The notes below the pieces were generated by a model that was not told where the DNA came from, searched no databases, and saw nothing but the letters and a program-made list of their open reading frames with translations. A stretch of DNA of 46,135 nucleotides from Aquificota bacterium (GTDB taxonomy: Bacteria; Aquificota; Aquificia; Aquificales; QOAS01). The position numbers and the translations under genes were made by a program. Every line of letters begins with the position of its first letter. The stretch's first letter is position 1. The DNA lies in NCBI GenBank assembly GCA_013153315.1, contig JAADES010000008.1:1-46135 (forward strand), written 5' to 3'. Positions 3,007 through 39,326 of the stretch are shown piece after piece.

Positions 3007-3069
3007 AAGCGTTAATCCCTCTAGCGTTAACGCTCTAGGGGTTAACGGTTAGGGGAGGGTGCTATTGTT
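3007..3069 (-). repeat. Hairpin repeat, divergent long copy (R5)
   Basis: On the minus strand this begins ACAATAGCACC and ends ATTAACGCTT, the two flanks of the 39-nt family at 20220, 21826, 22152 and 22235. The interior is longer and holds the 12-bp palindrome AGCGTTAACGCT. It starts 4 bases after the stop of the Crp/Fnr gene and overlaps the start of the next gene. Confidence 0.65.
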
Positions 3070-8686: not shown

Positions 8687-8751
8687 AGGGATTTTTGACA
8701 GGTTTCTACTAGAGGAGGAAAGAAGGTAAAGAAAAACTCAGAAGGGAAAAG

Positions 8752-9522
8752 TTATCTTAAATCTCCATATTCGACCTTTTTATCTTGAACATCTATAAGG
8801 GCGAAATAACCTTTGCACATAGGGCCGGGGTTTACCACAAAGGTGTCGCCTATTTGTTCGTAGCCGCGGCCGGCCAATCCTACTATTGCTATTTCGGGGT
8901 TAAAGGTTTTTATTAGGGTGTTAGATATGGGGCTTCCGTGGTGCTTACCGTCGGGGCAAACGTCCACCTTTTTACCTATCGGCGGGTGGTGTAAAACCAT
9001 TATCTTGCGTTTAGGTTTGAGTTCATACATAAATTTGAGGACATATTCGGCATACCAACGGGGGTATTTAACAACAAAATCCTCTTCAAAAATGGTTTCG
9101 TTTAATTTTCCACCCAAACCGAAGACTACAAATTCGCTACCCCAGTTGGCGAATGTTTCGTGAACCCCCCTTAGGTTAGGATAAACTTCCTCCATTTGGG
9201 CCAAAGCCCTTAGGTAAACCTTTAAAGGAGCGTCGTTTTTTCCGGGGACTATAAAGGTTTTTACTCCAGTTTCTCCCAAGGTTTTGAAAAACTCGTTAAG
9301 GATTTCTATTTGATGTTTTTCCACCTCATGGAGGATTTCCCTTTTGGGGGGACGACCCATGAGGGAGGCATTATGATATTCTTCCTCTAATAGGGTTCCT
9401 TTTAGCACACTTCCGGCGAATATTATTGCATCGGGTTGGAGTTCTTTAACAACGCTACGGAAGTTGGGCAAAAATTCCACAGCTTCTTTGAAATCCCTTA
9501 TAGCGAGGATTCTCCTATACAT
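8752..9522 (-). CDS. Metallophosphoesterase-fold protein with eroded metal motifs
   Basis: A 256-residue protein whose segment order follows the calcineurin-like phosphoesterase fold. Most signature positions are altered: the first block reads LAIRDF instead of DxH, the second FAGSVLKG instead of GD, the third VPGKNDAP instead of GNHD/E, and the last GLAGRGYEQIGDTFVVNPGP instead of GHxH before the usual NPGS. Only HHPPIG remains canonical. It may be a divergent enzyme, a regulator or a ligand-binding relative. The start at 9522 is preferred because a run of G lies just upstream; an in-frame codon at 9573 would add 17 unsupported residues. Confidence 0.7.
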   Translation of the reverse strand: MYRRILAIRDFKEAVEFLPNFRSVVKELQPDAIIFAGSVLKGTLLEEEYHNASLMGRPPKREILHEVEKHQIEILNEFFKTLGETGVKTFIVPGKNDAPLKVYLRALAQMEEVYPNLRGVHETFANWGSEFVVFGLGGKLNETIFEEDFVVKYPRWYAEYVLKFMYELKPKRKIMVLHHPPIGKKVDVCPDGKHHGSPISNTLIKTFNPEIAIVGLAGRGYEQIGDTFVVNPGPMCKGYFALIDVQDKKVEYGDLR

Positions 9523-17718: not shown

Positions 17719-18210
17719 TTAATCTTGTCCTTTAATAGGACAATATCTTTCCAAAATCCTTTCAATGATTTGGCTTGTAGATATTTGATACTTGAAAGGT
17801 ATTGTTAAAACCTTTCCACCGTAGGATTGAACTATATCTTTACCCACTATTTGGTCTATCTCCCAATCCCCTCCCTTTACGAGGACATCGGGCTTTATGG
17901 CCTCAATAAGTTTTAGCGGGGTATCTTCCTCAAAGGGGACAACGTAATCGACCGCGCAAAGGTTGGAAAGAACGAAGGCCCTTAGGGGCAATTCCAATAT
18001 AGGGCGGTTTTTACCTTTTAACCTTTTAATGGAACCGTCGCTATTTATACCCACAATTAGGATATCCCCCAACTTTTTACACTCGTTGAGGTAATGAACA
18101 TGCCCAGCGTGGAGTATATCGAAACACCCGTTGGTAAAAACAATTTTCTTTTTACCTCTAAAGGGTTTTAATACCTTTAAAAGTTCCTCAAGGGGAAGAA
18201 TTTTGCCCAT
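17719..18210 (-). CDS. rfaE2: D-glycero-beta-D-manno-heptose 1-phosphate adenylyltransferase
   Basis: Adenylates heptose 1-phosphate to ADP-heptose, used for the inner core of lipopolysaccharide. The 163 residues are a standalone version of the HldE C-terminal domain: nucleotidyltransferase motif NGCFDILHAGHVHYL with its HxGH, GINSDGSIKRLKG, VLVKGGDWE and the ISTSQIIERI tail. The kinase half (RfaE1) is not here. With the O-antigen-ligase-like gene at 3065 it argues for an LPS-bearing outer membrane. A TAAAAT box lies 16 bases upstream of the ATG. Confidence 0.92.
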   Translation of the reverse strand: MGKILPLEELLKVLKPFRGKKKIVFTNGCFDILHAGHVHYLNECKKLGDILIVGINSDGSIKRLKGKNRPILELPLRAFVLSNLCAVDYVVPFEEDTPLKLIEAIKPDVLVKGGDWEIDQIVGKDIVQSYGGKVLTIPFKYQISTSQIIERILERYCPIKGQD

Positions 18211-18345
18211 TTTCCGGTTAGGGAATATTTTAAGGTCGTTCCAAATTAGTTAGGAATAGAAACCACTTTAACTATATCCCCCTCATAGGAAGGTTAAAAA
18301 GCACCCTTTAAGTTAAAAGTTGAACCTAAAAGCCCTAAGACGGGA

Positions 18346-18351
18346 TATAAA
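18346..18351 (+). promoter_or_regulatory. Possible -10 box of the suf operon
   Basis: TATAAA about 50 bases before sufC, with TTGAAC 20 bases upstream (18320-18325). That spacer is longer than ideal. No IscR/SufR-type operator is recognised. Confidence 0.35.
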
Positions 18352-18401
18352 AACCTTTAAACCCTTAAGGGGAAAAGGATAGAAACCAAAGGAGGTTGAA
18401 A

Positions 18402-19157
18402 ATGAAAGATAACCGACTATTGGAAGTCAAAAATTTAAAATACTCCGCCGACGGGAAGGAGATTATAAAAGGTGTTAACCTTGATGTAAAGGAAGGGGAA
18501 ATTCATGTAATCCTCGGCCCCAACGGTGCGGGAAAATCCACTTTAGCCAATCTAATAGCGGGTGCGGTAGGCTATGAAGAACCCACCGAAGGGGAAATAA
18601 TTTTTGACGGAAAATTGTTAAACGGAAAACCTATTTATGAAAGGGCCAAATTAGGTTTAACCATAGCCTTCCAAGAGCCTGCAAGATTTGAAGGCATTAC
18701 CGTAGAAGAATATCTAAAGCTTTCAGCCCGCAACAATCCCGACGCCAATATAGAAGAATGTTTAAGAAAAGTGGGCTTAGAGCCTTGCGAATATCTCCAC
18801 CGTTATGTGGATGAATCCCTATCGGGAGGAGAAAGAAAAAGGATAGAGCTAGCCTCCATAATGTGCATGAAGCCCAAGCTGGCCGTTTTAGACGAAATAG
18901 ACAGCGGAATAGATTTTGTTTCCATAGATGAAATAGGAAACCTCTTTAAAACAATGAGGGACGAAGGCACCACCCTTTTAGTTATAACCCACCGCGAAAA
19001 TATAGCCAACATAGCCGATAGAGCTTCCTTGATGTGCGACGGCCGAATAGTGGAAACGGGCAACCCCAAGGAAATCATTAAGAAATTCGAAAAAGAGTGC
19101 CTAACCTGCACCGTGCAAAACCCTGAAGTTTTGAAAGAAATAAATCTCAACAAATAA
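18402..19157 (+). CDS. sufC: Fe-S cluster assembly ATPase SufC
   Basis: ABC-type ATPase that drives the SufB scaffold during iron-sulfur cluster assembly in the cytoplasm. It shows Walker A GPNGAGKST, the Q-loop in AFQEPARFEGI, the signature LSGGERKRIELASI and Walker B LAVLDEIDSGID, which is the SufC-specific form. ATG 18402 is chosen because AAGGAGG lies 6 bases upstream; the TTG at 18396 abuts that site. sufB follows after 19 bases with its own ribosome site. Confidence 0.95.
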   Translation: MKDNRLLEVKNLKYSADGKEIIKGVNLDVKEGEIHVILGPNGAGKSTLANLIAGAVGYEEPTEGEIIFDGKLLNGKPIYERAKLGLTIAFQEPARFEGITVEEYLKLSARNNPDANIEECLRKVGLEPCEYLHRYVDESLSGGERKRIELASIMCMKPKLAVLDEIDSGIDFVSIDEIGNLFKTMRDEGTTLLVITHRENIANIADRASLMCDGRIVETGNPKEIIKKFEKECLTCTVQNPEVLKEINLNK

Positions 19158-19176
19158 ACCCAAGGGAGGTTTTACC

Positions 19177-20118
19177 ATGAAACTAAATTTAGATAACCGA
19201 GTTTTGCAGGGTGTCGATTTCCTCCAAAAGGTTGGGGTATCTATAAAACCCGAAGATTTGGCTTTCTTCGTAGATAAAAACGAAGTTCTACATAAAAAAC
19301 CCATAGAAGGAATAAAATCCGAAGTAATACCTACCGAATTTGGTATCAAAATGAGAACGGTTATCGAACCCGGGGTAAAAATAAAGTATCCCGTAGCCCT
19401 ATGTTTTGGGAATATTCAGCACGGTGGAGAACATATAAACGAACAAGAACTGATAGTTGGCGAGGGGGCCGATGTAAAAATATACACATTCGCAATAATA
19501 GGCCCCGGGCAAAGTCTCCATAGGAAGGATTTGGTTACCGTAAGACTAGGGAAAAACGCCAAGGTAGAGCTCTACGATATTCACTACCACGATAAAAGTG
19601 CAGATATAGATTTCTACGCCGAATTAAACGCCTACTTAGATGAAGGTGCTTATTTCTACAACCTATTGAAAGTGACCGACCAAAAAAGCGGAAAATTCAA
19701 AACCAAGTTTTACGGCGAAGTAGGAAAGAACGCTTCCGTAATAGTAGAGGCAAAAATGAAAGCTACCGAAGGCGACGATGTTGTAGTTGAAGACATCATA
19801 AAATTGGTAGGAGAAGGGGCTAGGGGTCTATCCAAATCGAGAATAATAGCCCTCGACGGTGCAAAAGCCGAATTTATCGGAGAAGCCCACGGAGACGCAC
19901 CCAACTCCAGGTGTCATATAGATTGTGCGGAAGTTGTGAAGGGTGAAAATATAACCCTCAAAAACATACCTATTTTGGTATCCAAAAACGAAACAGCCAA
20001 ACTAACACACGAAGCTTCCATAGGAAAAATCGATAAAAAACAATTGGAAACGCTTATGGCAAAGGGTCTAACCGAGGACGAGGCCACCGAAGTAGTGGTT
20101 CAAGGAATGTTAAGATAA
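19177..20118 (+). CDS. sufB: SufB/SufD-family Fe-S scaffold
   Basis: A 313-residue beta-helix core protein of the SufBD family, shorter than Enterobacteria-type SufB (about 480) and close to the compact form in minimal two-gene systems of archaea and thermophiles. Features are LTHEASIGKIDKKQLETLMAKGL near the end and the repeated strand pattern in the middle. With no sufD, sufS or sufU nearby, a homodimeric SufB with SufC is inferred. GGGAGG precedes the ATG. An IS110-type island begins about 50-80 bases after the stop. Confidence 0.92.
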   Translation: MKLNLDNRVLQGVDFLQKVGVSIKPEDLAFFVDKNEVLHKKPIEGIKSEVIPTEFGIKMRTVIEPGVKIKYPVALCFGNIQHGGEHINEQELIVGEGADVKIYTFAIIGPGQSLHRKDLVTVRLGKNAKVELYDIHYHDKSADIDFYAELNAYLDEGAYFYNLLKVTDQKSGKFKTKFYGEVGKNASVIVEAKMKATEGDDVVVEDIIKLVGEGARGLSKSRIIALDGAKAEFIGEAHGDAPNSRCHIDCAEVVKGENITLKNIPILVSKNETAKLTHEASIGKIDKKQLETLMAKGLTEDEATEVVVQGMLR

Positions 20119-20194
20119 TTTTTCCTTTCTCTGTTTTTCTTTTTATCTTAAAAATTTACCTATTATCCTATATTAGTCTCCTAAGAGAAGTTAA

Positions 20195-20342
20195 TTGTTC
20201 CCCCAAAGGGGCGGGTTAAACAATAGCACCCTTTCCTAAAGGAAAGGGGTTAACGCTTTGGGGGAACAGGGAAAGGGTGGCGACGAACATAATGCTACGC
20301 TCCAAGCGTAGCGTTTACCTATTTGCCACCCAAACCCGCCCC
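20195..20342 (+). ncRNA. Candidate bridge RNA in the leader of the IS110 transposase
   Basis: The 275-base gap before the transposase folds strongly. A 13-bp perfect stem pairs 20196-20208 with 20256-20268 and encloses a hairpin repeat (stem 20229-20236/20241-20248). A second arm pairs 20275-20283 with 20323-20331 and, above a 7x7 internal loop, 20291-20301 with 20305-20315. A further 10-bp match between 20208-20217 and 20333-20342 would make a pseudoknot or an alternative fold. IS110-group elements such as IS621 encode a bridge RNA upstream of the recombinase, with two loop-bearing arms. Position and architecture fit; sequence homology was not testable. Confidence 0.6.
20220..20258 (+). repeat. 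39-nt hairpin repeat (R1)
   Basis: ACAATAGCACC, then stem CTTTCC, loop TAAA, stem GGAAAG, then GGGTTAACGCTT. It lies inside the 13-bp outer stem of the candidate bridge RNA. Confidence 0.85.
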
Positions 20343-20392
20343 TACCCTATAAACGCAAAAAATCCCAAAAACCAAAGGCGGGGGATAAAACT

Positions 20393-21832
20393 ATGGAGAA
20401 AAGGAAACTTGCTAACCAAAAACATCAAAACAGCAAAGTAAAACGCACCTATTGGGGTGTAGATGTAGCTAACGGCTTTATAATCCTCAACAACGGCAAC
20501 CCTTGCACATTCTACCTATACATAGATGCTCCCAACATTACCCCAAAAACCCCCGCCAATAAACTAAAGGCGTGCAAAAAACGCACCAAAACCATAAAAA
20601 TTGAAGACCTTGCCGAAATAATAAAGCCCAACGATGTGGTAATCCTTGAACAAACGGGAAACTACGGAATACGCTATGCCCAACTATTTGCCCAACTCGG
20701 TGCAACAGTAATGCTCGCAGATAGCAAAATGTTCGCTTTTTTCCGCAAAGGGCGTAATGTCCACAAAAACGACAAAGTAGATGCCTACCTATTGCGTCAA
20801 ATGTTTTTCGACATAGAATTTAAGCACTACATACACAAATTTATTCCCGAAAAACACCACCTACGACAATTAATAAAAAGCAACCAAAAAATTGAAAAAG
20901 AAAGAACACGACTTATAAACCGCCTTAAAAACCTCTTAGCCGTAGCCCTACCTAAAGAAAACTACCATCACCTTGAAACCCAAAAATTTGTTAGAAAAAT
21001 AGCCGAAATAAAAGAAAAAATAGCCTTAACGCCCCACCCATACACGGAAACAATTTATTTAAGCCTCGAAATCTTAGAAAACTACGAAAAACTTTTAAAA
21101 GCCCAAACCGCCGAAATAGAAAGCATTATTAAAAATCACCCCGACTATGAGCTTTTAAGCACCATAAAAGGATTTGGAACAAAAACTATAGCGACCCTAA
21201 TAGCCTACTATTGGGACATTAAAAGATTTAAAACCCTAAACCAATTTAAAGGCTATATGCTAAAAGGAACAATAATAGAACAATCGGGGCAAACTATTAA
21301 CCGAATAAAAAACCTAAAAAGTCGCCCCGAAGTTAAAAAAGTGCTATACCTACTTTGGAAACAAACCGCCCGAAGAAAAAACAACCCACTAAGGCACTTA
21401 GTAAAACTAAGCTACGAAATAAATAAAAAGAAAGCTTGGATAAAATTCGCCGACAAACTTTTAGAGCTGGTTTATTATATGCTCAAATACCGCCTAACCT
21501 TTGCCGAGGCGGTGGAATATTCAGTTAAAAACAAAGAAAAAGAAATAAAAAACCTTACAAAACAACTAAGTAAAAAGCTAAAAGAAGAGCAAAAACAAGA
21601 ATACTTTAAAAAGCTTGTTAAGCTACAGCATTTAATAAAAAACTGGGTGGCGTATCAGGATACTGCCTTAGAACTAAAAGAAGGCGCAACGGAACTATGC
21701 CACCCAACACCTAAAACCTTACTAAAACAAACCTTAAGCCTATTAGAACCCAACGAACTTAAAACCTTAGCTATAAACCTACAACTTTTAGATAGCGAAC
21801 TAACAAACCCCCTAAAAGAAACCCTACAATAG
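20393..21832 (+). CDS. IS110-family DEDD transposase/recombinase
   Basis: A 479-residue recombinase. The N-terminal RuvC-like domain keeps D24 (WGVDVAN), E86 (LEQTGNYG), D127 and D130 (KNDKVDA). The C-terminal Transposase_20 domain has the GFGTKTIATLIAYY turn and the nucleophile S298 in IEQSGQT, so all catalytic residues are present and the enzyme should be active. The final 100 residues or so (from KNKEKEIKNLTKQL) are an extra charged helical extension not usual in IS110 proteins. The TAG stop lies within a hairpin repeat. Weak GGCGGGGGA-type ribosome site upstream. Relatives IS621 and ISPpu10 insert into REP palindromes guided by a bridge RNA. Confidence 0.92.
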   Translation: MEKRKLANQKHQNSKVKRTYWGVDVANGFIILNNGNPCTFYLYIDAPNITPKTPANKLKACKKRTKTIKIEDLAEIIKPNDVVILEQTGNYGIRYAQLFAQLGATVMLADSKMFAFFRKGRNVHKNDKVDAYLLRQMFFDIEFKHYIHKFIPEKHHLRQLIKSNQKIEKERTRLINRLKNLLAVALPKENYHHLETQKFVRKIAEIKEKIALTPHPYTETIYLSLEILENYEKLLKAQTAEIESIIKNHPDYELLSTIKGFGTKTIATLIAYYWDIKRFKTLNQFKGYMLKGTIIEQSGQTINRIKNLKSRPEVKKVLYLLWKQTARRKNNPLRHLVKLSYEINKKKAWIKFADKLLELVYYMLKYRLTFAEAVEYSVKNKEKEIKNLTKQLSKKLKEEQKQEYFKKLVKLQHLIKNWVAYQDTALELKEGATELCHPTPKTLLKQTLSLLEPNELKTLAINLQLLDSELTNPLKETLQ

Positions 21833-21864
21833 CACCTTTCGCTTTAGCGAAAGGGTTAACGCTT
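21826..21864 (+). repeat. 39-nt hairpin repeat (R2), contains the transposase stop codon
   Basis: ACAATAGCACC, stem TTTCGC, loop TTTA, stem GCGAAA, then GGGTTAACGCTT. The TAG of ACAATAG is the transposase stop. The stem differs from R1 on both strands while pairing is kept. Confidence 0.85.
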
Positions 21865-21901
21865 TTACAGAACTTAAACCCGACCTTATGGGAGGATAAA
21901 A

Positions 21902-22087
21902 ATGATTTCCTACGACAAAAGCATAAAAATCCGCATAGACAGCGAAACCTTAGAAGAGCTAAAAATATTGGCACGCATAAACAAAGTTAAAACCTCGGAA
22001 TTTATAAGGCAACTAATCTATAGAGAACTACGGAAAAACCGAGACCTAATAAAAGAAGAGAAAGAAAAAGCCTTACACCAACCCTAA
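21902..22087 (+). CDS. Small ribbon-helix-helix (CopG/Arc-like) protein
   Basis: 61 residues. The strand KIRIDSETLEELKILA followed by the turn and helix KVKTSEFIRQLIYRELR is a ribbon-helix-helix DNA-binding fold, which acts as a dimer. A strong site GGGAGG precedes the ATG. No toxin gene follows, so an antitoxin role is unsupported. Lying just behind the transposase and between hairpin repeats, it may bind the palindromes or control the transposase; this is inference. Confidence 0.75.
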   Translation: MISYDKSIKIRIDSETLEELKILARINKVKTSEFIRQLIYRELRKNRDLIKEEKEKALHQP

Positions 22088-22109
22088 CTAACCCACAACA
22101 CACCGCCCC

Positions 22110-22153
22110 AATAAAGGCAACTCTACTAACCCATTTAATAAAGGCAACTCTAC
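22110..22153 (+). repeat. 17-bp direct repeat, 27-bp period
   Basis: AATAAAGGCAACTCTAC occurs at 22110 and again at 22137. The second copy runs into hairpin repeat R3, and its GGCAACTC can pair with GAG...TTGCC beyond R3. Confidence 0.8.
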
Positions 22154-22190
22154 AATAGCACCCTTCCCTAAAGGGAAGGGGTTAACGCTT
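22152..22190 (+). repeat. 39-nt hairpin repeat (R3)
   Basis: ACAATAGCACC, stem CTTCCC, loop TAAA, stem GGGAAG, then GGGTTAACGCTT. An outer helix GGCAACTC/GAG-AA-TTGCC encloses it, echoing the outer stem of R1. Confidence 0.85.
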
Positions 22191-22234
22191 TTCGAGAATT
22201 GCCAACGGCCTCCTATTGACAAGGGGACGAGACT

Positions 22235-22273
22235 ACAATAGCCTCCTTTCCTTTAGGAAAGGAATTAACGCTT
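22235..22273 (+). repeat. 39-nt hairpin repeat (R4)
   Basis: ACAATAGCCTC, stem CTTTCC, loop TTTA, stem GGAAAG, then GAATTAACGCTT. The change CC to TC on the left is matched by GG to GA on the right, a compensatory pair. Confidence 0.85.
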
Positions 22274-22388
22274 CCAAGCACCCGCCCCCTAACAGGGAAA
22301 TAAGCACTCCCGAACTGGTTAAAAAAGAAATATAGCCAAAAAACCCAAAAAGAGCCTTTTTTATGGACACAAAAAAAGGGGGTATATT

Positions 22389-22547
22389 ATGGAAAGCTTC
22401 GACACCATCTTAAAACTACGCATAGACAAAGAAGAACTAAAGAAAATCGCAGAAAAAGAAAAAACCACAATGAGCGAATTAATAAGAATGCTCATTTATT
22501 CAAAAATAGGGGAATACCGAAAGAAATATCTCCCCAAAAAGATTTAA
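22389..22547 (+). CDS. Second small ribbon-helix-helix protein
   Basis: 52 residues: MESFDTILKLRIDKEELKKI, then a helix-turn-helix stretch with TTMSELIRMLIYSKIGEY and a basic tail. The strand LKLRIDKEEL and helix MSELIRMLIY parallel the protein at 21902 (KIRIDSETL, SEFIRQLIYREL), so the two are likely diverged duplicates. AAGGGGGT precedes the ATG. It is the last coding sequence before a 770-base noncoding stretch. No partner toxin is visible. Confidence 0.68.
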   Translation: MESFDTILKLRIDKEELKKIAEKEKTTMSELIRMLIYSKIGEYRKKYLPKKI

Positions 22548-22752
22548 AAGCTTCCCCTTTACCCAAAAAGGGATAAATTAAAACACCTATGCCCTTTCTA
22601 AAGGTCTTTCTCTTACTCCTCCCCAACGAGTGCAAATAAGATTTAGTAAAAACCCATCTATGACCCCCTATAAGGGAATATAAATCCTACTTGTGTTAAC
22701 TTTGACCCCGTAAAACCTATTAGGGGGAATAATTTCCTTCCCCCGGATAGAA

Positions 22753-22871
22753 CGCCGGTAATCCACCCCTCCGGAGGTCTGCCGGTAATCTACCCCTCCT
22801 TTTGGAACGCCGGCAATATGTCCTTCTTAAAGGAATGCCGGTAATCTATCCCTCCGGAGGTCTGCCGGTGG
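22753..22871 (+). repeat. Tandem array of 27-28-bp units, each with a small hairpin
   Basis: YGCCGGYAAT begins at 22753, 22780, 22808 and 22836, and TGCCGGT again at 22863, giving periods of 27, 28, 28 and 27. Each unit carries a variable palindrome: CCTCCGGAGG, TCC-TTTT-GGA, TCCTT-CTTA-AAGGA, CCTCCGGAGG. The head is conserved while stems vary in a paired way. There are no unique spacers, so it is not a CRISPR array. Confidence 0.8.
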
Positions 22872-22880
22872 TTTTATTAA

Positions 22881-22905
22881 AGAAAAACCTTTGAAAGGAA
22901 GGTTT
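22881..22905 (-). terminator. Terminator-like repeat identical to the uspA terminator
   Basis: 25 bases identical to 39301-39325. On the minus strand AAACCTT pairs with AAGGTTT and is followed by TTCTTT. No minus-strand gene ends here, so it may be a copied or mobile terminator. Confidence 0.5.
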
Positions 22906-22950
22906 AAAAAACTCCCTTTGGTGGAAGGTCTTAAAGTTTTTCCTTAAGGA

Positions 22951-22968
22951 GGAGCCAAAGGCTCTTTT
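22951..22968 (+). terminator. Intrinsic terminator downstream of the tandem array
   Basis: GGAGCC-AAAG-GCTC followed by TTTT. No protein gene lies directly upstream, so it may end a noncoding transcript through the 22753 array. Confidence 0.5.
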
Positions 22969-22982
22969 AATATTCTTTCATT

Positions 22983-23107
22983 AGGCCTACCTTTTGACTT
23001 CTAAGCCGATAAGTAGGCTGTCTATAGTGGGTTTGCTTTAGCTTAGTCCTGCGTGAAATAGGCCTGCACAGCGTCAACGCTTAGAAGGCTGAAAAAGTTT
23101 CGCAGGG
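22983..23107 (+). other. Structured noncoding stretch upstream of speE
   Basis: GCCTAC (from 22986) can pair with GTAGGC near 23014, CCTGCG near 23042 with CGCAGG at 23101, and AGCG-TCA-ACGCT forms an inner hairpin. It is richer in G and C than the flanks. No known RNA family is recognised. It could be a small RNA or part of the speE leader. Confidence 0.35.
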
Positions 23108-23108
23108 C

Positions 23109-23155
23109 GTGCTTAAACCCCGCAAAAAAAGTGTATTGTTGCGGGGTGCTATAAT
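23109..23155 (-). repeat. Divergent hairpin repeat (R7)
   Basis: On the minus strand ATTATAGCACC precedes and GGTTTAAGCAC follows a 9-bp stem (23117-23125 with 23139-23147) with a 13-base loop. Flanks and layout match the 39-nt family apart from the longer loop. Confidence 0.55.
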
Positions 23156-23315
23156 AGAATATTTTTTCTTTCGTTTCTTTTACCTAAAGGATGGAACTTC
23201 TACCCCCCTTAAAAGGAAAAATAAAGCACCCTTAAAATGTCCCTACAATTTTCCAAACTTGATTATTATTATCATAGGCTTTACTTTTTAAAAAGCTTGA
23301 CCACAATAAGGAACT

Positions 23316-24158
23316 ATGTTCGACATTCATTTCTTTGAGAGAGACCCCTACGCTCCGGTTAGACACTGCTACACCGTTTCCAACGTTCTCTATCATACAA
23401 AAAGCCAATATCAGGAAATTTTAGTTTTTGAAAATCCCTTCTTTGGTAAAGTCTTGGTCTTAGACGGGGTAGTTCAACTGACCGAAAGGGACGAATTTAT
23501 TTATCACGAAATGCTGGCCCACGTTGCCCTTATGGCCCACCCTAACCCCAAAAAGGTTTTGATAATCGGCGGTGGGGATGGGGGCACTTTAAGGGAAGTT
23601 TTAAAACATAAAAGTGTAGAAGAGGCGGTTCTGGTAGATATAGACAAGGAGGTTATAGAAACCTCAAAGAAATTCTTCCCCCAACTATCCAAATCCTTCG
23701 AAGACCCGAGGGCCATAGTGGTAAACGAAGATGGGGTTAAGTATCTCCAAGATTACGAAAACGAATTCGATATAGTGATAGTCGATAGCACCGACCCTGT
23801 TGGTTTTGCCTACGCCCTTACCACCGAAGAATTTTTCAAATCGGTTTATAGGGCCCTTAAAGAGGACGGAATTTATGTAGGACAAAGTGAGTCCCTCCAC
23901 TACCACCTCGACATAGTTAGGAGATTCCAAAATAACCTAAAGGCGGTCTTTCCTATAGTTGACCTCTACACGGCGGTTATACCTACCTATGCCGGTTATT
24001 GGTGGACCTTCTCCATAGCAAGCAAAAAGCATAATGTTAGGGAACCCAAAAGGGAGAAAGATTTCGAAACCAGATATTACTCCGAGGTGGTTCACAAAAA
24101 CGCTTTTCTACCCGACGAGCTTTACGAGAAGCTTATAGTTAAAGGAGAGTGGCTATAA
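23316..24158 (+). CDS. speE: Spermidine synthase-type aminopropyltransferase
   Basis: Transfers aminopropyl from decarboxylated SAM to putrescine or another polyamine acceptor. The 280 residues include the N-terminal GKVLVLDGVVQLTERDEFIYHEM, the nucleotide loop VLIIGGGDGGTLREVLKH, acidic VDIDKEV, the catalytic-loop DSTDPVG and the C-terminal TYAGYWWTFSIASK. Thermophiles often make longer or branched polyamines, so the acceptor specificity is open. AAGGA precedes the ATG. A long noncoding region lies upstream, and a YdjM-type gene follows after 15 bases. Confidence 0.93.
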   Translation: MFDIHFFERDPYAPVRHCYTVSNVLYHTKSQYQEILVFENPFFGKVLVLDGVVQLTERDEFIYHEMLAHVALMAHPNPKKVLIIGGGDGGTLREVLKHKSVEEAVLVDIDKEVIETSKKFFPQLSKSFEDPRAIVVNEDGVKYLQDYENEFDIVIVDSTDPVGFAYALTTEEFFKSVYRALKEDGIYVGQSESLHYHLDIVRRFQNNLKAVFPIVDLYTAVIPTYAGYWWTFSIASKKHNVREPKREKDFETRYYSEVVHKNAFLPDELYEKLIVKGEWL

Positions 24159-24173
24159 CAAAAATATTCCCCT

Positions 24174-24692
24174 ATGAAAGGACACACCCACATTGCCGGC
24201 GGGCTTTTGTTTGCCTTTTTATTTAACGTTCCCGGTTATGCCATTCCTATGGCGGTAATAGGCTCTACTTTTCCCGATATAGACCTCTCTTTTACCTATT
24301 ACATTCCCCCCAAAGGGGTTAAAACAACCTTGTTTAACACCCACAGGGGAATAACCCACCACCCGGCTATAGTTGTTTTTTTGTTCCTTCTGTGGGTTTT
24401 TTTAATGAATAAATATCCCCAATACAAGTTCTATTGGGATTTTCTTTACGGCTTTTGGGTAGGTTATCTATCCCACCTTGTATTGGACGCAATGACAAAA
24501 AAAGGAATCCCCGTAGGGTTGGGCTATTATCCAAGGTTCTCTTTTAAGCTGATGAAAACGGGAGGAACGGGGGAAAAATTTGTCTTTGGTCTAATAGTTG
24601 TTCTCCTTATAGGGGTTATTTTTCTTAAAGCCAACCCCCAGTTGGTGGAAAATGTTTTTAGCTCCTTTAAAGGTTTGATTAAAGTTTCTTAA
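24174..24692 (+). CDS. YdjM-type membrane-bound metal-dependent hydrolase (DUF457)
   Basis: 172 residues with four hydrophobic helices. The family motifs are HTHIAGG at the N-terminus, GSTFPDIDL, the NTHRGITHHPAI histidine motif and HLVLDAMTKKGIP. YdjM of E. coli is SOS-controlled; no LexA box was recognised here. The biochemical activity of the family is unproven. The last bases overlap the rluB gene on the other strand by 4. Confidence 0.85.
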   Translation: MKGHTHIAGGLLFAFLFNVPGYAIPMAVIGSTFPDIDLSFTYYIPPKGVKTTLFNTHRGITHHPAIVVFLFLLWVFLMNKYPQYKFYWDFLYGFWVGYLSHLVLDAMTKKGIPVGLGYYPRFSFKLMKTGGTGEKFVFGLIVVLLIGVIFLKANPQLVENVFSSFKGLIKVS

Positions 24693-25399
24693 TCCAACCC
24701 CACCATTTTTTTTAGCTTTTTAACTTCCTCCTCGGTAAGGTGGCGATAATAACCTTCCAGCAAATCTTCGTCCAATTGGATTTCCCCTATGGCAACCCTC
24801 TTTAGGTTTAAAACTTTATTACCCAACTCCTTAAAAAGGTTTTTAACTATGTGAAATCTTCCTTCGGTTATAGTTAGTAGCACCCTGTTGGGTTCGAGAA
24901 CCTTTAAATCCTCTACCGCAACAGGTTTGCCATCAACCAAAACCTTACGCTGTTTAATTTTTTCAATTTGTTCCTCGGTTAGGGGTTTTTCCAGCAAAAC
25001 TTCGTAGGTTTTAGGAACCTTCCATTTGGGGTGGGTTATACGGTGGGCCAGCTGCCCATCGTTGGTAACCAAAAGGAAACCTTCGGCGTCCACATCCAAG
25101 CGTCCGGCGGCAAAGGGCTCTAAATGTTCATACTCGGGTATAAGCTCCAAAAAGGAAGGGTAATCCTTGTCCCTTTCGGTGGTTGATAGATACCCTTTAG
25201 GTTTGTTCAACATTAGATAGATTTTGTCCTTAGCCTCCACCTTTTGACCATCTACAAAAACGTTAGCCTTTTCGGGAACTTTAAAATCGGCTTTCCTAAT
25301 AACTTCCCCGTCCACCTGAACCTCTCCGCGACGGATAATTTCTTTAGCTTCCTTACGGGTTACTCCCAAAGCTTTGGAAATGTATTTATCCAACCTCAT
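24689..25399 (-). CDS. RsuA/RluB-family rRNA pseudouridine synthase
   Basis: 236 residues: an S4 RNA-binding domain (about 1-60, MRLDKYISKALGVTRKEAKEI) and the catalytic domain with AAGRLDVDAEGFLLVTNDG, which carries the essential Asp. The C-terminal ITEGRFHIVKNLFKELGNKVLNLKRVAIG is family-typical. Target is either 16S U516 (RsuA) or 23S U2605 (RluB); the length cannot separate them, although most single-copy bacterial homologues are RluB-like. It is divergent from recR. Confidence 0.9.
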   Translation of the reverse strand: MRLDKYISKALGVTRKEAKEIIRRGEVQVDGEVIRKADFKVPEKANVFVDGQKVEAKDKIYLMLNKPKGYLSTTERDKDYPSFLELIPEYEHLEPFAAGRLDVDAEGFLLVTNDGQLAHRITHPKWKVPKTYEVLLEKPLTEEQIEKIKQRKVLVDGKPVAVEDLKVLEPNRVLLTITEGRFHIVKNLFKELGNKVLNLKRVAIGEIQLDEDLLEGYYRHLTEEEVKKLKKMVGLD

Positions 25400-25465
25400 A
25401 GGAAAAAAATAAAGTTATTCCCGACGGCGGTTTTAACCTTAAAACAAACTAAGGGGGGTAAAAAT

Positions 25466-26083
25466 TTGGCAAAACCGATAATTCCTTCGGAAATAGTCCA
25501 AGCCTTGGAATTACTTAAACAAATTCCGGGAATAGGAGACCGAACCTCCACCCGCCTTTTTTACAATCTTTTTAAACTTCCCAAAAACCAAAGGTTGGAA
25601 ATTATTAAAAACCTCGCTCGGGCGGTTAATAATCTTAGCCCCTGTAAGGAGTGTTTTATTTTGACCAACAAGGAGGTATGTGATATTTGTTCTTCCCCCG
25701 AGAGGACAAAAAAAATAATCACCGTGGTGGAGGAAAGCTCCGACGCTTACACCATAGAAAGGTTGGGAAAATATAAAGGGGTTTACCACATTTTGGAAGG
25801 TAGAATTTCACCCCTCGAAGGTGTAGGGCCAGAAAATTTAACTATAGAAAAACTACTCCAAAGGGTGGAAAAATATCTTCCTGAGGAGGTAATCCTTGCA
25901 ACCAATCCCAACACCGAAGGGGAAGCTACCGCGGCCTACATAGGAAAGCTTTTAAAAAAGAAGTTTCCCCAATTAAAAATAACGCGGATAGGTTTGGGGG
26001 CGGCCTTCGGCACCTATTTAGAGCTTTTGGAGGAAAACACTCTCAACGAAGCTTTTTCCTCCAGAAAAGATTGGGAAAGTTAG
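25466..26083 (+). CDS. recR: Recombination mediator RecR
   Basis: Works with RecO (and RecF) to load RecA on gapped DNA. The protein is 205 residues when started at the TTG at 25466, which follows GGGGGG by a few bases; an open frame extends 74 codons further upstream but overlaps the start of the rluB-like gene. It contains a helix-hairpin-helix (LLKQIPGIGDRTSTRL), the zinc motif CKECFILTNKEVCDIC and a Toprim domain with VVEESSDAYTIERLGKYKGVYHILEG. Confidence 0.93.
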   Translation: MAKPIIPSEIVQALELLKQIPGIGDRTSTRLFYNLFKLPKNQRLEIIKNLARAVNNLSPCKECFILTNKEVCDICSSPERTKKIITVVEESSDAYTIERLGKYKGVYHILEGRISPLEGVGPENLTIEKLLQRVEKYLPEEVILATNPNTEGEATAAYIGKLLKKKFPQLKITRIGLGAAFGTYLELLEENTLNEAFSSRKDWES

Positions 26084-26153
26084 AAAGAAGTTTATTTTTA
26101 CAATTGGCTTCGCGTCGGTTTTTAACCTCTATGCTAACCTTTATTTTCTCGCA

Positions 26154-27941
26154 ATGAAAAACTACGACATTAGGAACATCGCAATAATAGCCCACGTTGA
26201 CCACGGAAAAACAACCCTCGTTGACAATATGCTAAAGCAGTCGGGACTATTTAGGGAAAACCAGGAGGTCGGAGAACTTATTTTGGACAATCTCGACCTT
26301 GAACGCGAACGGGGAATAACCATAATGGCAAAAATCGCCTCCGTTTGGTATAAGAACACCAAGATAAACATAGTCGACACCCCCGGCCACTCCGATTTCT
26401 CCGCCGAGGTGGAAAGGGTTCTTAGAATGGTCGACGGGGCCCTCCTTTTGGTAGATGCCGCCGAAGGCCCTATGCCTCAAACCAGATTTGTCTTAAAGAA
26501 AGCTCTCGAGCAAGGTTTAAAGCCGATAATCGTTATAAACAAAATAGATAAAGCCAACGCCCGCCCCGAAGAGGTTGTGGAAGAAGTTTATGACCTCCTA
26601 TTGGAATTGGGAGAAGACGAAAGCCTTTTGGAGGTTCCCGTTTTATATGCCATAGGTAGGCAGGGAATAGCCAAATATTCCCTTGAGGAGGAAGGAAAAG
26701 ATTTAAGACCTCTTTTCGAAACCATAATTAAACATGTTCCCCCACCTAAGGAACTTAGAAAGGATACCCTCCAAATATTGGTTTCCTCCCTCGATTACGA
26801 CCCCTACGTGGGAAGACTAACAATAGGAAAGGTCTTCAGTGGGACTATAAAAAAGGGCCAATCGGTGGTTTTGTTAAAAAAAGACGGCTCAACCGTTTCG
26901 GGGAAAGTTCAAAAATTGTTTGTCTATGAGGGGGTAGGTAGAAAAGAGGTAGAAGAAGCTCCTCCTGGCGAGATAGTGGCTTTCGCTGGCTTTGAAAACG
27001 CTGAAATAGGGGATACCGTTTCCCTACCTGAAAACCCCGTAGCCCTACCGCCCATAGAAGTGGAAGAACCAACCATAAGCATGATTTTTTCCGTAAATAA
27101 ATCCCCCTTTGCCGGACGGGAGGGGAAATTTGTAACATCAAGACACCTTAAAGAGCGTTTGGAAAAAGAAACCTTAACCAACTTGGCAATAAGGGTAGAA
27201 CCGACCGATAGCACCGAAGCCTTTAAGGTTAGCGGAAGGGGAGAACTCCAGCTGGCCATCCTAATAGAGCAGATGCGCCGGGAGGGCTACGAGTTTGAAG
27301 TTTCCAAACCCAAAGTTATAACCAAGGAAATAAACGGCGTTAAACACGAGCCTGTGGAAGAGGTGGTTATGGACATTCCCGAAGAGTATTCGGGCGCTAT
27401 TATCGAAGCCTTGGGAAAAAGAAAAGGGGTAATGAAGGATATGGTGCCCACCGAAGGGGGAAGGGTAAAACTTGTCTTTGAAGTTCCCACCCGAGGACTT
27501 ATCGGTTTCAACCAGGAGTTCATGACAATAACCAAGGGCGAAGGAATAATGAACAAAACCTTCCTAAGGTGGGCCCCTTGGCAGGGAGAAATTAAATATC
27601 GCCAAAACGGTGCCTTGGTCTCCGACCGCGAAGGCAAAGTTACCGCTTACGCCCTAAAAGGTTTGGAAGATAGGGGCGTTTTCTTTGTAGAGCCGGGGAC
27701 GGAAGTTTACAAGGGCATGATAGTGGGAGAGCACAACCGCGATAAAGACCTGTGGGTTAACGTTTGCCGCCAGAAAAAGTTAACCAACATAAGGGCGGCC
27801 GCCGCCGACGAAGCGGTTAAAATAGAGGCCCCCCGCAAAATGTCCCTCGAACAATGTTTGGAATTTATTAATGACGATGAACTTGTGGAGGTTACCCCCC
27901 AAAATATCCGTATGAGGAAGAAAAACTTAAATCCTTCCTAA
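26154..27941 (+). CDS. typA: Ribosome-associated GTPase TypA/BipA
   Basis: Translational GTPase of the EF-G fold that assists 50S assembly and stress adaptation. All five G motifs are present: AHVDHGKTTL, RGITIMAK, DTPGHSDF, NKIDK and a following Ser/Ala-type motif. BipA-specific C-terminal features are PTRGLIGFNQEFMTITKGEGIMNKTF and the NVCRQKKLTNIRAAAADEAVK segment. Length of 595 is standard. No Shine-Dalgarno precedes the ATG. Confidence 0.96.
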   Translation: MKNYDIRNIAIIAHVDHGKTTLVDNMLKQSGLFRENQEVGELILDNLDLERERGITIMAKIASVWYKNTKINIVDTPGHSDFSAEVERVLRMVDGALLLVDAAEGPMPQTRFVLKKALEQGLKPIIVINKIDKANARPEEVVEEVYDLLLELGEDESLLEVPVLYAIGRQGIAKYSLEEEGKDLRPLFETIIKHVPPPKELRKDTLQILVSSLDYDPYVGRLTIGKVFSGTIKKGQSVVLLKKDGSTVSGKVQKLFVYEGVGRKEVEEAPPGEIVAFAGFENAEIGDTVSLPENPVALPPIEVEEPTISMIFSVNKSPFAGREGKFVTSRHLKERLEKETLTNLAIRVEPTDSTEAFKVSGRGELQLAILIEQMRREGYEFEVSKPKVITKEINGVKHEPVEEVVMDIPEEYSGAIIEALGKRKGVMKDMVPTEGGRVKLVFEVPTRGLIGFNQEFMTITKGEGIMNKTFLRWAPWQGEIKYRQNGALVSDREGKVTAYALKGLEDRGVFFVEPGTEVYKGMIVGEHNRDKDLWVNVCRQKKLTNIRAAAADEAVKIEAPRKMSLEQCLEFINDDELVEVTPQNIRMRKKNLNPS

Positions 27942-27974
27942 GGTTTTTCTTTTTGCTTTTTAAAATTCCATAAA

Positions 27975-28613
27975 ATGGATTTCCGAGTTTTTTACTTGCA
28001 CGGGTTGGGTTCTTCCTGCGAGGGAACCAAAGCCACTAAAACCAAAGAACTGGTTAACCAATTAGGTGGGGAATTTAACTGCCTAAATTTGGACTATCTA
28101 AAAAAACACAAACCTTGGGACGTTTTAAATATTCTCCAAAGTTGGGTTAAAGAGGATATTCCCTTTTTCCTTGTCGGCTCTTCTATGGGGGCCTACACTT
28201 GGTTGGATTATTTGGTTGAAAACCCTCAAGTGCTAAATAATACAAACCTAAAGAAGGTAATTCTCATAACTCCTCCAACCACCCTTTTTGATAACTTGGA
28301 GAAATGGGAACCCCTTTTTGGAACCAAGAAAATCTTTTTCCGCTACGGGGAGGACTACATATACCCCTACAGGGAAATTATCCGCCTAATGCATTGGGAT
28401 ATAAAAGGTGCCAACTTTAGATTGTTAAAATTGGCCCACCCCAAGGTATATTCCATATTGGCTAAAAGGGATACTGTGGTAAACAACCAACCTATTTTGG
28501 AATTGGCCAATCTTGTAAAACTCAATCTGTTTGAAATTGATGACGAGCACCCTTTAAGGAACTCCATAGACCAACTTATCCAACTGTTGGAAAAACTTTT
28601 TAAAGAGTTTTAA
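27975..28613 (+). CDS. Alpha/beta hydrolase, YqiA/UPF0227-like esterase
   Basis: 212 residues with a YLHGLGSSCEGTKA oxyanion loop, nucleophile serine in VGSSMGAYTWLDY, acid Asp in LAKRDTVVNNQP and His in IDDEHPL, giving a full Ser-Asp-His triad. The N-terminal HGLGSS..GTKA is typical of the YqiA group, which hydrolyses short acyl esters. No signal peptide, so it should be cytoplasmic. The substrate is unknown. The ATG has no Shine-Dalgarno and lies 33 bases after typA. Confidence 0.8.
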   Translation: MDFRVFYLHGLGSSCEGTKATKTKELVNQLGGEFNCLNLDYLKKHKPWDVLNILQSWVKEDIPFFLVGSSMGAYTWLDYLVENPQVLNNTNLKKVILITPPTTLFDNLEKWEPLFGTKKIFFRYGEDYIYPYREIIRLMHWDIKGANFRLLKLAHPKVYSILAKRDTVVNNQPILELANLVKLNLFEIDDEHPLRNSIDQLIQLLEKLFKEF

Positions 28614-32246: not shown

Positions 32247-33347
32247 ATGGCAGTTTTAGCTGTTTCGGGCGGCGGAACGGGCGGACACTTTTTCCCCGCC
32301 CTAACCGTTATGGAAAAAGCTAAAGAAGAAACCGCTTTCAGGGAAATATTTTTCCTCGGAGACCGCCGGGGGATTGAATACCGTTTAAAAGAAACCCTTT
32401 CTAAGGTAGCAACCCCCGTATTCCTCCAATTGGAAAAGTTTAAAGGGGTTTCCCTCGCAAGGAAACTAAAGTTTTTAACCTCCTTGGGAAAAAATATTTA
32501 TCAAATCCATAAAGTGCTGGAAGGAAAAAATTTTATCTCCCTCCATTTTGGGGGTTATACGGGTGTCCCCCTCGGTCTATATTCGGTATTGAGAAAGAAA
32601 CCTCTCTTTCTTCACGAACAGAATTCTATTCCCGGAGCTACAAACCGATACCTTGCCAAGGTTGCAAAAAGGGTTTTTATTACCTTCCCCCAAAGTGAAA
32701 AATTTTTTCCCAAACATAAGGTGGTATTAACCGGTATGCCCCTCCGCAAAGAGGTAAAAAAAGCCAAAAACCTTTCAAAGGAGCAAATTTATAAAAAGCT
32801 CGGTATTGAAAAGGAACTTTTTACTCTCCTTATAATGGGAGGTTCCCAAGGGGCCAAGGCTATAAATAAGTTGGCTGTGGAACTTTCTCTTCTCCTTAAA
32901 AAGGAAGATATTCAAATAATCCACCTTACGGGGCCTAGAAATTACGAAGAAACCCTTTCAATGTATAAAGCGGCCAAAGTAGACCTTTCAAGGGTAAAGG
33001 TAATTCCCTTTTACCTGAATATGGGAGAAATTTACCGAATTGCCGATTTCGCTATTTCCCGCAGCGGGGCGGCCACCTCCTTTGAGTTGGCCTATTTTGG
33101 AATACCAACCCTATTTATACCCTTCCCTTACGCTATATACAACCATCAGTATCACAACGCTAAGTATTTCGTCCAAGAGGGTGGAGCTTACCTTATGGAG
33201 GAAAAATTTTTGAACCTAAATAAGGTGTTGTTAATATTGAAAAACCACCTGAAGGATAAAAGTCTGCACCAACAAAAAAGGGAAGCGATGCTCAAATCCT
33301 TCATTCCCGACGCGGAAGAAAAAATTTTAAAAAACCTTTTTTTGTAA
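32247..33347 (+). CDS. murG: UDP-GlcNAc:undecaprenyl-pyrophosphoryl-MurNAc-pentapeptide transferase
   Basis: Converts lipid I to lipid II on the inner face of the membrane. The 366 residues contain the N-terminal loop SGGGTGGHFFPAL, LHEQNSIPGATNRYLAK, the mid-loop MGGSQGAKAINKL and the UDP-GlcNAc site SGAATSFELAYFGIPTLFIPFPYAIYNHQ. It is not in a dcw cluster here. A divergent hairpin repeat begins at its last base. Confidence 0.94.
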   Translation: MAVLAVSGGGTGGHFFPALTVMEKAKEETAFREIFFLGDRRGIEYRLKETLSKVATPVFLQLEKFKGVSLARKLKFLTSLGKNIYQIHKVLEGKNFISLHFGGYTGVPLGLYSVLRKKPLFLHEQNSIPGATNRYLAKVAKRVFITFPQSEKFFPKHKVVLTGMPLRKEVKKAKNLSKEQIYKKLGIEKELFTLLIMGGSQGAKAINKLAVELSLLLKKEDIQIIHLTGPRNYEETLSMYKAAKVDLSRVKVIPFYLNMGEIYRIADFAISRSGAATSFELAYFGIPTLFIPFPYAIYNHQYHNAKYFVQEGGAYLMEEKFLNLNKVLLILKNHLKDKSLHQQKREAMLKSFIPDAEEKILKNLFL

Positions 33348-33403
33348 AGCGTTAACCCAAACCTTTAGGATTTGGTGCTATTGTAGGTAAAGGTGCTATT
33401 GTT
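33347..33403 (-). repeat. Hairpin repeat (R6) with a partial second flank
   Basis: Core 33347-33384 on the minus strand: ACAATAGCACC, stem CAAA(T)CC, loop TAAA, stem GGTTTG, then GGTTAACGCTT, with one bulged base. An extra GGTGCTATTGTT copy (plus strand) lies at 33392-33403. It begins on the murG stop codon. Confidence 0.75.
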
Positions 33404-39289: not shown

Positions 39290-39326
39290 AGAAAATAAAA
39301 AGAAAAACCTTTGAAAGGAAGGTTTT
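39290..39326 (-). terminator. Intrinsic terminator of the universal stress gene
   Basis: On the minus strand, right after the TGA: AAAAACCTT, a 7-base loop, AAGGTTTTT, then TCTTTTTATTTT. A good rho-independent terminator. Its core 25 bases recur exactly at 22881-22905. Confidence 0.75.

What the first reader, a model, noticed from the sequence alone, without database searches (positions are those of the whole stretch)
22753..22871. Tandem 27-28-bp array with a constant head and variable hairpin
YGCCGGYAAT repeats at 27, 28, 28 and 27 bases. Each unit ends in a different but self-complementary segment. This is neither CRISPR nor a simple satellite, and a terminator lies about 80 bases downstream. 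It could be a noncoding RNA of serial hairpins or a cooperative protein-binding array, perhaps for the nearby ribbon-helix-helix proteins.
Basis: seen in the sequence. Interest (0 to 1): 0.6.

Follow-up and report, generated by a model that had tools for sequence, protein, structure and literature searches.

The report
Hairpin repeat array inside IS110-family element
A short run of four and a half hairpin-forming repeats is real, and it turns out to be part of a mobile DNA element that appears to use a guide RNA to insert itself in front of genes; what the repeats themselves do is not known, but they most likely belong to a structured RNA near the end of the element's transcript.

Summary
GCCGGYAAT starts at 22754, 22781, 22809 and 22837, with a truncated fifth head at 22864 (spacing 27, 28, 28, 27); the stretches between can form hairpins, and a + strand terminator-like site lies about 77 bases downstream. 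Two details change: spacers of units 1 and 4 are near-copies, so only three are distinct, and unit 2's stem is only 3 bp.

The setting is the main result. The array lies inside an IS110-family element of about 3.15 kb (about 20163-23314) inserted at the start codon of speE. An RNA-like structure upstream of the transposase has an internal loop; one side copies the left flank in 3 of 3 elements compared, the other matches the right flank in both elements where that flank could be read.

The array has no relative in anything searched, so conservation and paired substitutions could not be tested. The ribbon-helix-helix operator idea is not supported by motif distribution. Best reading, moderate confidence: a structured RNA segment at the 3' end of the element's + strand transcript. 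A functionless hairpin repeat is nearly as likely; a DNA-binding or replication array remains open.

The parts
20155..20164 (+). Left flank (target) TTTACCTATT, copied in the 3' side of the guide loop
   Evidence: 10-nt exact match to loop 20314-20323
20163..23314 (+). IS110-family element that carries the array (ends uncertain by a few bases because TAT is shared by both ends)
   Evidence: loop-to-flank matches at both ends and right end shared 21 of 22 nt with a sibling element
20270..20345 (+). Bridge/seekRNA-like target loop: stem GGGTGGC/GCCACCC, 12-nt guide, hairpin, 12-nt guide
   Evidence: fold z -6.1 for 20165-20395; 36 of 36 cells paired in 3 sequences, one pair changed on both sides
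20393..21832 (+). IS110-family transposase, 479 aa
   Evidence: Pfam DEDD_Tnp_IS110 5.5e-9 and Transposase_20 7.9e-8, both above cut-off
21902..22087 (+). Ribbon-helix-helix-like small protein 1, 61 aa
   Evidence: RHH_1 E 0.0012, below Pfam cut-off; PHROG 4113 7e-8
22389..22547 (+). Ribbon-helix-helix-like small protein 2, 52 aa
   Evidence: RHH_1 E 0.0037, below cut-off
22753..22871 (+). Tandem array: heads at 22754, 22781, 22809, 22837 and truncated 22864, with three distinct hairpin spacers
22743..22883 (+). Whole predicted fold around the array, closed by an outer stem of about 15 pairs
   Evidence: MFE -55.2 kcal/mol, z -3.8
22948..22968 (+). Intrinsic-terminator-like hairpin on the + strand
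   Evidence: 4 terminator-like sites found, 2.7 expected by chance
22879..22927 (-). Terminator-like hairpins on the - strand that would stop transcripts entering from the right
   Evidence: 22927-22912; 22879-22905 is a hairpin also found at 39299-39325; its role as a terminator was read by eye
23293..23314 (+). Right end AAGCTTGACCACAATAAGGAAC, directly followed by TATGTTCG (speE start)
   Evidence: 21 of 22 nt shared with the right end in G001:C60

Best explanation
The array is noncoding material of an IS110-family element, lying between its two small regulator genes and its right end. It is most likely transcribed on the + strand, as the far 3' part of the transposase-regulator transcript or as a separate short RNA, and folds into serial hairpins whose GCCGGY heads pair with one another. 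The transcript ends at the terminator-like site at 22948-22968. The likely job is to form a stable 3' RNA structure that protects the element's transcript and, with the terminators, keeps element transcription from running into speE. Shown: the repeat, its folding potential, its place inside the element, and the element's ends. Inferred: transcription, its direction, and the protective role.
For: Array and hairpins. Fold of 22743-22883 z -3.8, of 22750-22870 z -5.1, 0 of 200 shuffles as stable in each. Keeping the heads and shuffling only the spacers, 2 of 1000 fold as well; also keeping the identity of units 1 and 4, 3 of 1000. The one variable head base is C or T, which keeps G-C or G-U pairing in the + strand RNA but not in the - strand RNA (inference). 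Terminator-like site on + after the array and on - before it. Element membership: transposase domains, loop-flank matches, shared right end.
Against: No relative was found, so no conservation or covariation supports the fold. Permuting the heads in register leaves the energy unremarkable (233 of 1000 as stable), so the head sequence is not specially tuned for folding. Repeated palindromic units fold well for any reason. The number of terminator-like sites is near chance (4 against 2.7), no + strand promoter was found just before the array, and the - strand of the wider region also folds better than shuffles (z -2.9). No Rfam match. No expression data.
Confidence: 0.4

Rival explanations
1. A functionless hairpin repeat: a palindromic GC-rich unit that was duplicated by slippage or unequal exchange in an unimportant part of a mobile element, like other dispersed hairpins in this region.
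For: Found at one locus only. A 37-nt block recurs 83 bases apart at 92% identity, pointing to block duplication. Other small hairpin repeats occur in the same element. The hairpins of spacers 1 and 4 are not better than shuffles.
Against: The four heads are identical over 9 bases apart from one C/T position, while spacer 3 has diverged yet still forms a 5-bp hairpin; joint spacer test 0.0007.
Confidence: 0.33
2. A DNA-level array: binding sites for the ribbon-helix-helix proteins, or iterons of a replication origin left from a rolling-circle plasmid or phage-like ancestor.
For: Two ribbon-helix-helix-like genes lie just upstream. In a sibling element (L020) such a gene pair is followed by a Rep-like gene, and the Rep relative in G073 has a weak Phage_CRI match, E 0.0031, below cut-off. 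The heads are near-palindromes.
Against: Head motif absent (0 or 1 mismatch) upstream of either regulator gene or the transposase and not above chance in L020. The period is about 2.6 helical turns. No rep gene was seen in this element.
Confidence: 0.2
3. A second guide-type RNA for the transposase, working like the stem-loop arrays of TIGR systems, whose effector proteins are structural relatives of IS110 transposases.
For: Array of tandem stem-loops followed by a terminator-like site, in an element whose transposase belongs to a family related to Tas proteins (PMC12045711, passages, section 9).
Against: Between heads there are 18-19 bases that are largely the same in units 1, 2 and 4, so there are no diverse guides. 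The motif that flanks both guides of this element's own target loop (GYRGCG-N11-GCYAC) is absent from the array even with 2 mismatches. No 8-nt word of the loop guides and no 7-nt word of the element's end sequences occurs in the array.
Confidence: 0.05

Closest known systems
IS110 / IS1111 family insertion sequences with bridge RNA or seekRNA (PMC11208160, PMC11187229)
   Same: Transposase domains; an RNA-like loop upstream of the transposase whose two sides match the two flanks; precise sites.
   Different: The guide order here is complement of the right flank first, copy of the left flank second, which the seekRNA paper reports for IS1111 (passages), yet the loop is upstream of the transposase as in IS110. 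Two small regulator genes and a 767-base 3' noncoding region with the hairpin array are extra.
TIGR stem-loop arrays (PMC12045711)
   Same: Tandem stem-loop units followed by a terminator; link to IS110-type proteins.
   Different: No Nop-domain Tas gene, no pair of 8-12 nt variable spacers, few units.
REP/BIME-type extragenic hairpin repeats (recalled, not tested)
   Same: Short GC-rich palindromic units at gene 3' ends.
   Different: Here one locus only, four and a half units, inside a mobile element.

Membership tests
IS110/IS1111 family (the carrier element) | DEDD transposase with IS110/IS116/IS902 C-terminal domain | tested here: met
   both Pfam domains above cut-off; weak sequence match to solved ISCro4 and IS621 transposases
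IS110/IS1111 family (the carrier element) | Guide RNA loop whose two sides match the left and right flanks | tested here: met
   left flank 3 of 3 elements (10, 10, 8 nt); right flank 2 of 2 readable (window 8 nt; L042 9 nt, sought from the loop and found); L020's right flank not found
IS1111 group | Subterminal inverted repeats of 11-13 bp | tested here: not met
   best local alignment of the ends is no better than shuffles: window 402 of 500, sibling 88 of 500 reach it
IS1111 group | Guide order: complement of the top strand before the match | tested here: met
TIGR array | Two 8-12 nt variable spacers per unit, flanked by box C and D motifs | tested here: not met
   unit alignment A2: one conserved head and 18-19 bases that are alike in units 1, 2 and 4
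TIGR array | Adjacent Nop-domain Tas protein | tested here: not met
   no such Pfam domain among the element's three proteins
CRISPR array | Repeats of about 23-37 bases separated by unrelated spacers, with cas genes | tested here: not met
   9-base head, related spacers; no cas gene recognised by eye among the ORFs listed for 18000-28000
Ribbon-helix-helix operator array | Motif shared with the regulator's own promoter region | tested here: not met
Known RNA family in Rfam 15 | Covariance-model match | tested here: not met
   none at gathering score in the window; three matches far below gathering score, none over the array
Structured noncoding RNA | Transcription and covariation across relatives | not testable with these tools
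   no relative found; no expression data

The most novel reading that the evidence does not exclude
The element makes two structured RNAs: the guide RNA upstream of the transposase, and a serial-hairpin RNA downstream that the transposase or the small regulators bind in several copies to control transposition, an arrangement not seen in the passages read here of papers on IS110-family elements.
Probability: 0.1. Interest if true: 0.7.

Novelty: new variant of a known kind. Interest (0 to 1): 0.38.

Why it matters
The array alone is a small curiosity. Its setting is more useful: an IS110-family element whose guide loop predicts where it sits, at the start codons of speE and of a gcvP-like gene in a sibling, while its right end carries a Shine-Dalgarno-like AAGGA before the captured gene. 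The guide order is of the IS1111 type in an IS110-type position, which bears on how the two groups are related. If the array proves to be a second RNA of the element, it would add a layer of control to RNA-guided transposition.

Tried and rejected
Related arrays: strict two-unit pattern in 121 class genomes, found only at this locus. Single-unit pattern with 2 mismatches in 7 genus genomes: scattered single matches, four in a row only here (in the window's own genome 26 matches against 24 for the backward control, in the six others more than the control). A script over loci L046-L228 found 192 matches; 187 lie in an open frame of 100 or more codons in some frame, and the other five, read by eye, are tandem copies of unrelated units (only the 45 shortest-frame cases were printed and read). 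Single-unit pattern in viral contigs: 19 loci, all with one head only. blastn against plasmids and phages: only short pieces of 8-12% of the query, none over the heads.

A 22-nt match in G006 (L014) to spacer 1 lies in a coding gene. Close transposase relatives in viral contigs and plasmids: none. Class-level relatives of the transposase (37-43% identity) have no ribbon-helix-helix or Rep-like gene in the stretches fetched (9 loci) and no such array by eye in the 600 bases downstream (8 of 9; none was left for L276).

Empty site: the bases before speE in four congeners resemble the left flank only weakly (shuffle fractions 0.02 to 0.35), so the flank join rests on the guide matches and the shared right end, not on this. 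Donor-binding loop: no pair of matches of 7 or more bases to both ends that would form a loop was recognised (the coordinates it prints beyond 20400 are shifted because two pieces were joined). Subterminal inverted repeats rejected.

Full report
What is there. The array was read directly. Heads GCCGGTAAT, GCCGGTAAT, GCCGGCAAT and GCCGGTAAT start at 22754, 22781, 22809 and 22837, and a truncated head GCCGGTGG at 22864, so the spacing is 27, 28, 28 and 27. It is the top-scoring tandem repeat of 26 rows in the window. The spacers are 18-19 bases. Units 1 and 4 end alike (CCCTCCGGAGGTCT), unit 2 has a 3-bp stem around TTTT, and unit 3 a 5-bp stem TCCTT/AAGGA. The three distinct spacers together fold better than shuffled ones (0.0007), but u1 and u4 alone do not (0.17, 0.32). 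The heads are near-palindromes, so any two can pair. The whole stretch 22743-22883 folds to -55.2 kcal/mol, z -3.8, and the inner part 22750-22870 has z -5.1. Shuffling the spacers while keeping the heads rarely gives as stable a fold (2 of 1000), whereas permuting the heads often does (233 of 1000).

Where it sits. The gene at 20393-21832 is an IS110-family transposase (Pfam DEDD_Tnp_IS110 and Transposase_20). Just upstream is a structure of the kind known as bridge RNA or seekRNA: an outer stem, two 12-base loop sides and an inner hairpin. A genome of the same genus, G001, holds two sibling elements (L020, with a transposase 72% identical; L042, only its start). The same structure is present in all three; 36 of 36 cells are standard pairs and one pair is changed on both sides, but with three sequences this is not significant against shuffles (176 of 500).

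The guides fit the flanks. In each of the three elements the 3' loop side repeats the element's own left flank: TTTACCTATT at 20155-20164 here, ATAGCTCACT in L020 and AACTCTAA in L042. The 5' side should be the reverse complement of the right flank. Here that gives TATGTTCG, found at 23315-23322 at the start of speE; by my estimate an 8-base match alone would be expected about once by chance in the stretch searched. For L042 the loop predicts TATGGCATA. A pattern made from the L042 and L020 loops had 124 matches in G001, not all of them listed. Eighteen regions around such matches were fetched. One, at the end of contig C60, reads AAGCTTGACTACAATAAGGAAC followed by TATGGCATA. This equals 21 of 22 bases of the window's 23293-23314, which is directly followed by TATGTTCG. 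Searching the genus for this right end with up to 3 mismatches gave three places: this one, C60, and a look-alike with two mismatches before another gene of the window's genome. The right flank of L020 was not found. The element therefore runs from about 20163 to 23314, and the array is part of it.

Consequences for the array. It lies between the second small regulator gene (ends 22547) and the right end. A + strand terminator-like site follows at 22948-22968, and - strand terminator-like hairpins stand at 22927-22912 and, by eye, at 22905-22879. If these work, the array would be transcribed from the left only. No + strand sigma-70-like promoter was found just before it. The number of terminator-like sites is not much above chance (4 against 2.7), so this is inference.

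Relatives. None were found: 1 of 121 class genomes has the two-unit pattern, namely this one; congeners have no array; hits of a three-head pattern in large collections are in long open frames or are unrelated tandem copies and those of a one-unit pattern are single heads; plasmid and phage blastn gave only short pieces; Rfam gave nothing over the array.

Regulators and origin. The two small proteins have weak ribbon-helix-helix matches. In L020 such a pair is followed by a Rep-like gene, and a relative in G073 with an upstream ribbon-helix-helix gene weakly matches Phage_CRI, E 0.0031 and below cut-off. The sibling thus looks like an element with a plasmid- or phage-type replication module, and an iteron or origin role for the array is conceivable. 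Against an operator role, the head motif does not occur elsewhere in the element.

Literature. Passages and one section were read, not whole papers. PMC11208160 (passages) defines left and right guides. PMC11187229 (passages) states that in IS1111 the complement of the top strand precedes the match and in IS110 the order is reversed, that the RNA is usually downstream in IS1111 and upstream in IS110, and that 26 listed elements have two long noncoding regions. The present element has the IS1111 order in the IS110 position and no significant subterminal inverted repeats. PMC12045711 (passages; section 9) describes TIGR stem-loop arrays, which resemble this array only superficially. A full-text search for IS110 with ribbon-helix-helix and transposase found no paper.

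Verdict. A real repeat with real hairpin potential, carried by what looks like an RNA-guided mobile element, of unproven function. The most likely reading is a structured 3' RNA segment; a functionless repeat is nearly as likely.

Noticed in passing
20220-20266, 21826-21872, 22152-22198, 22235-22281; also near 3007-3068 and 33347-33402 on the - strand: A dispersed hairpin element of about 47 bases, ACAATAGC-hairpin-GTTAACGC, with four copies inside this mobile element, one of them within the first stem-loop of the guide RNA region compared with L020 and L042.
   Followed up: partly
window 20277-20329; L020 199-255; L042 1316-1373: Guide loop with IS1111-type order (complement of right flank first) although it lies upstream of the transposase. 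In order-level relatives L279, L280, L281 and L283 the 5' side seems, by eye, to copy the left flank, which is the IS110 order.
   Followed up: partly
window 23293-23322 and L322 (G001:C60): The element's right end ends in AATAAGGAAC directly before TATG of the captured gene (speE; a gcvP-like gene, named by eye from its translation), so it may supply a Shine-Dalgarno and perhaps a promoter to that gene.
   Followed up: partly
22879-22905 and 39299-39325: A 27-base hairpin AAAGAAAAACCTTTGAAAGGAAGGTTT is identical at both places, with weaker copies elsewhere in the genome.
   Followed up: partly
L020 2139-3043, L284 140-872, L285 4439-5997: Ribbon-helix-helix gene directly before a Rep-like gene in three places, one of them beside the IS110-type transposase.
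   Followed up: partly
L230 (G006), just upstream of speE: CRISPR-like array with repeats close to GTTTTTATGTCCCTATAAGGGATTGAAAC that become degenerate toward speE.
   Followed up: no
L287 about 8733-8928 and L284 1090-1285: Two loci of the window's genome share about 200 bases at 81% before unrelated genes; L287 8647-8699 also shares 53 bases at 85% with window 22598-22650.
   Followed up: partly
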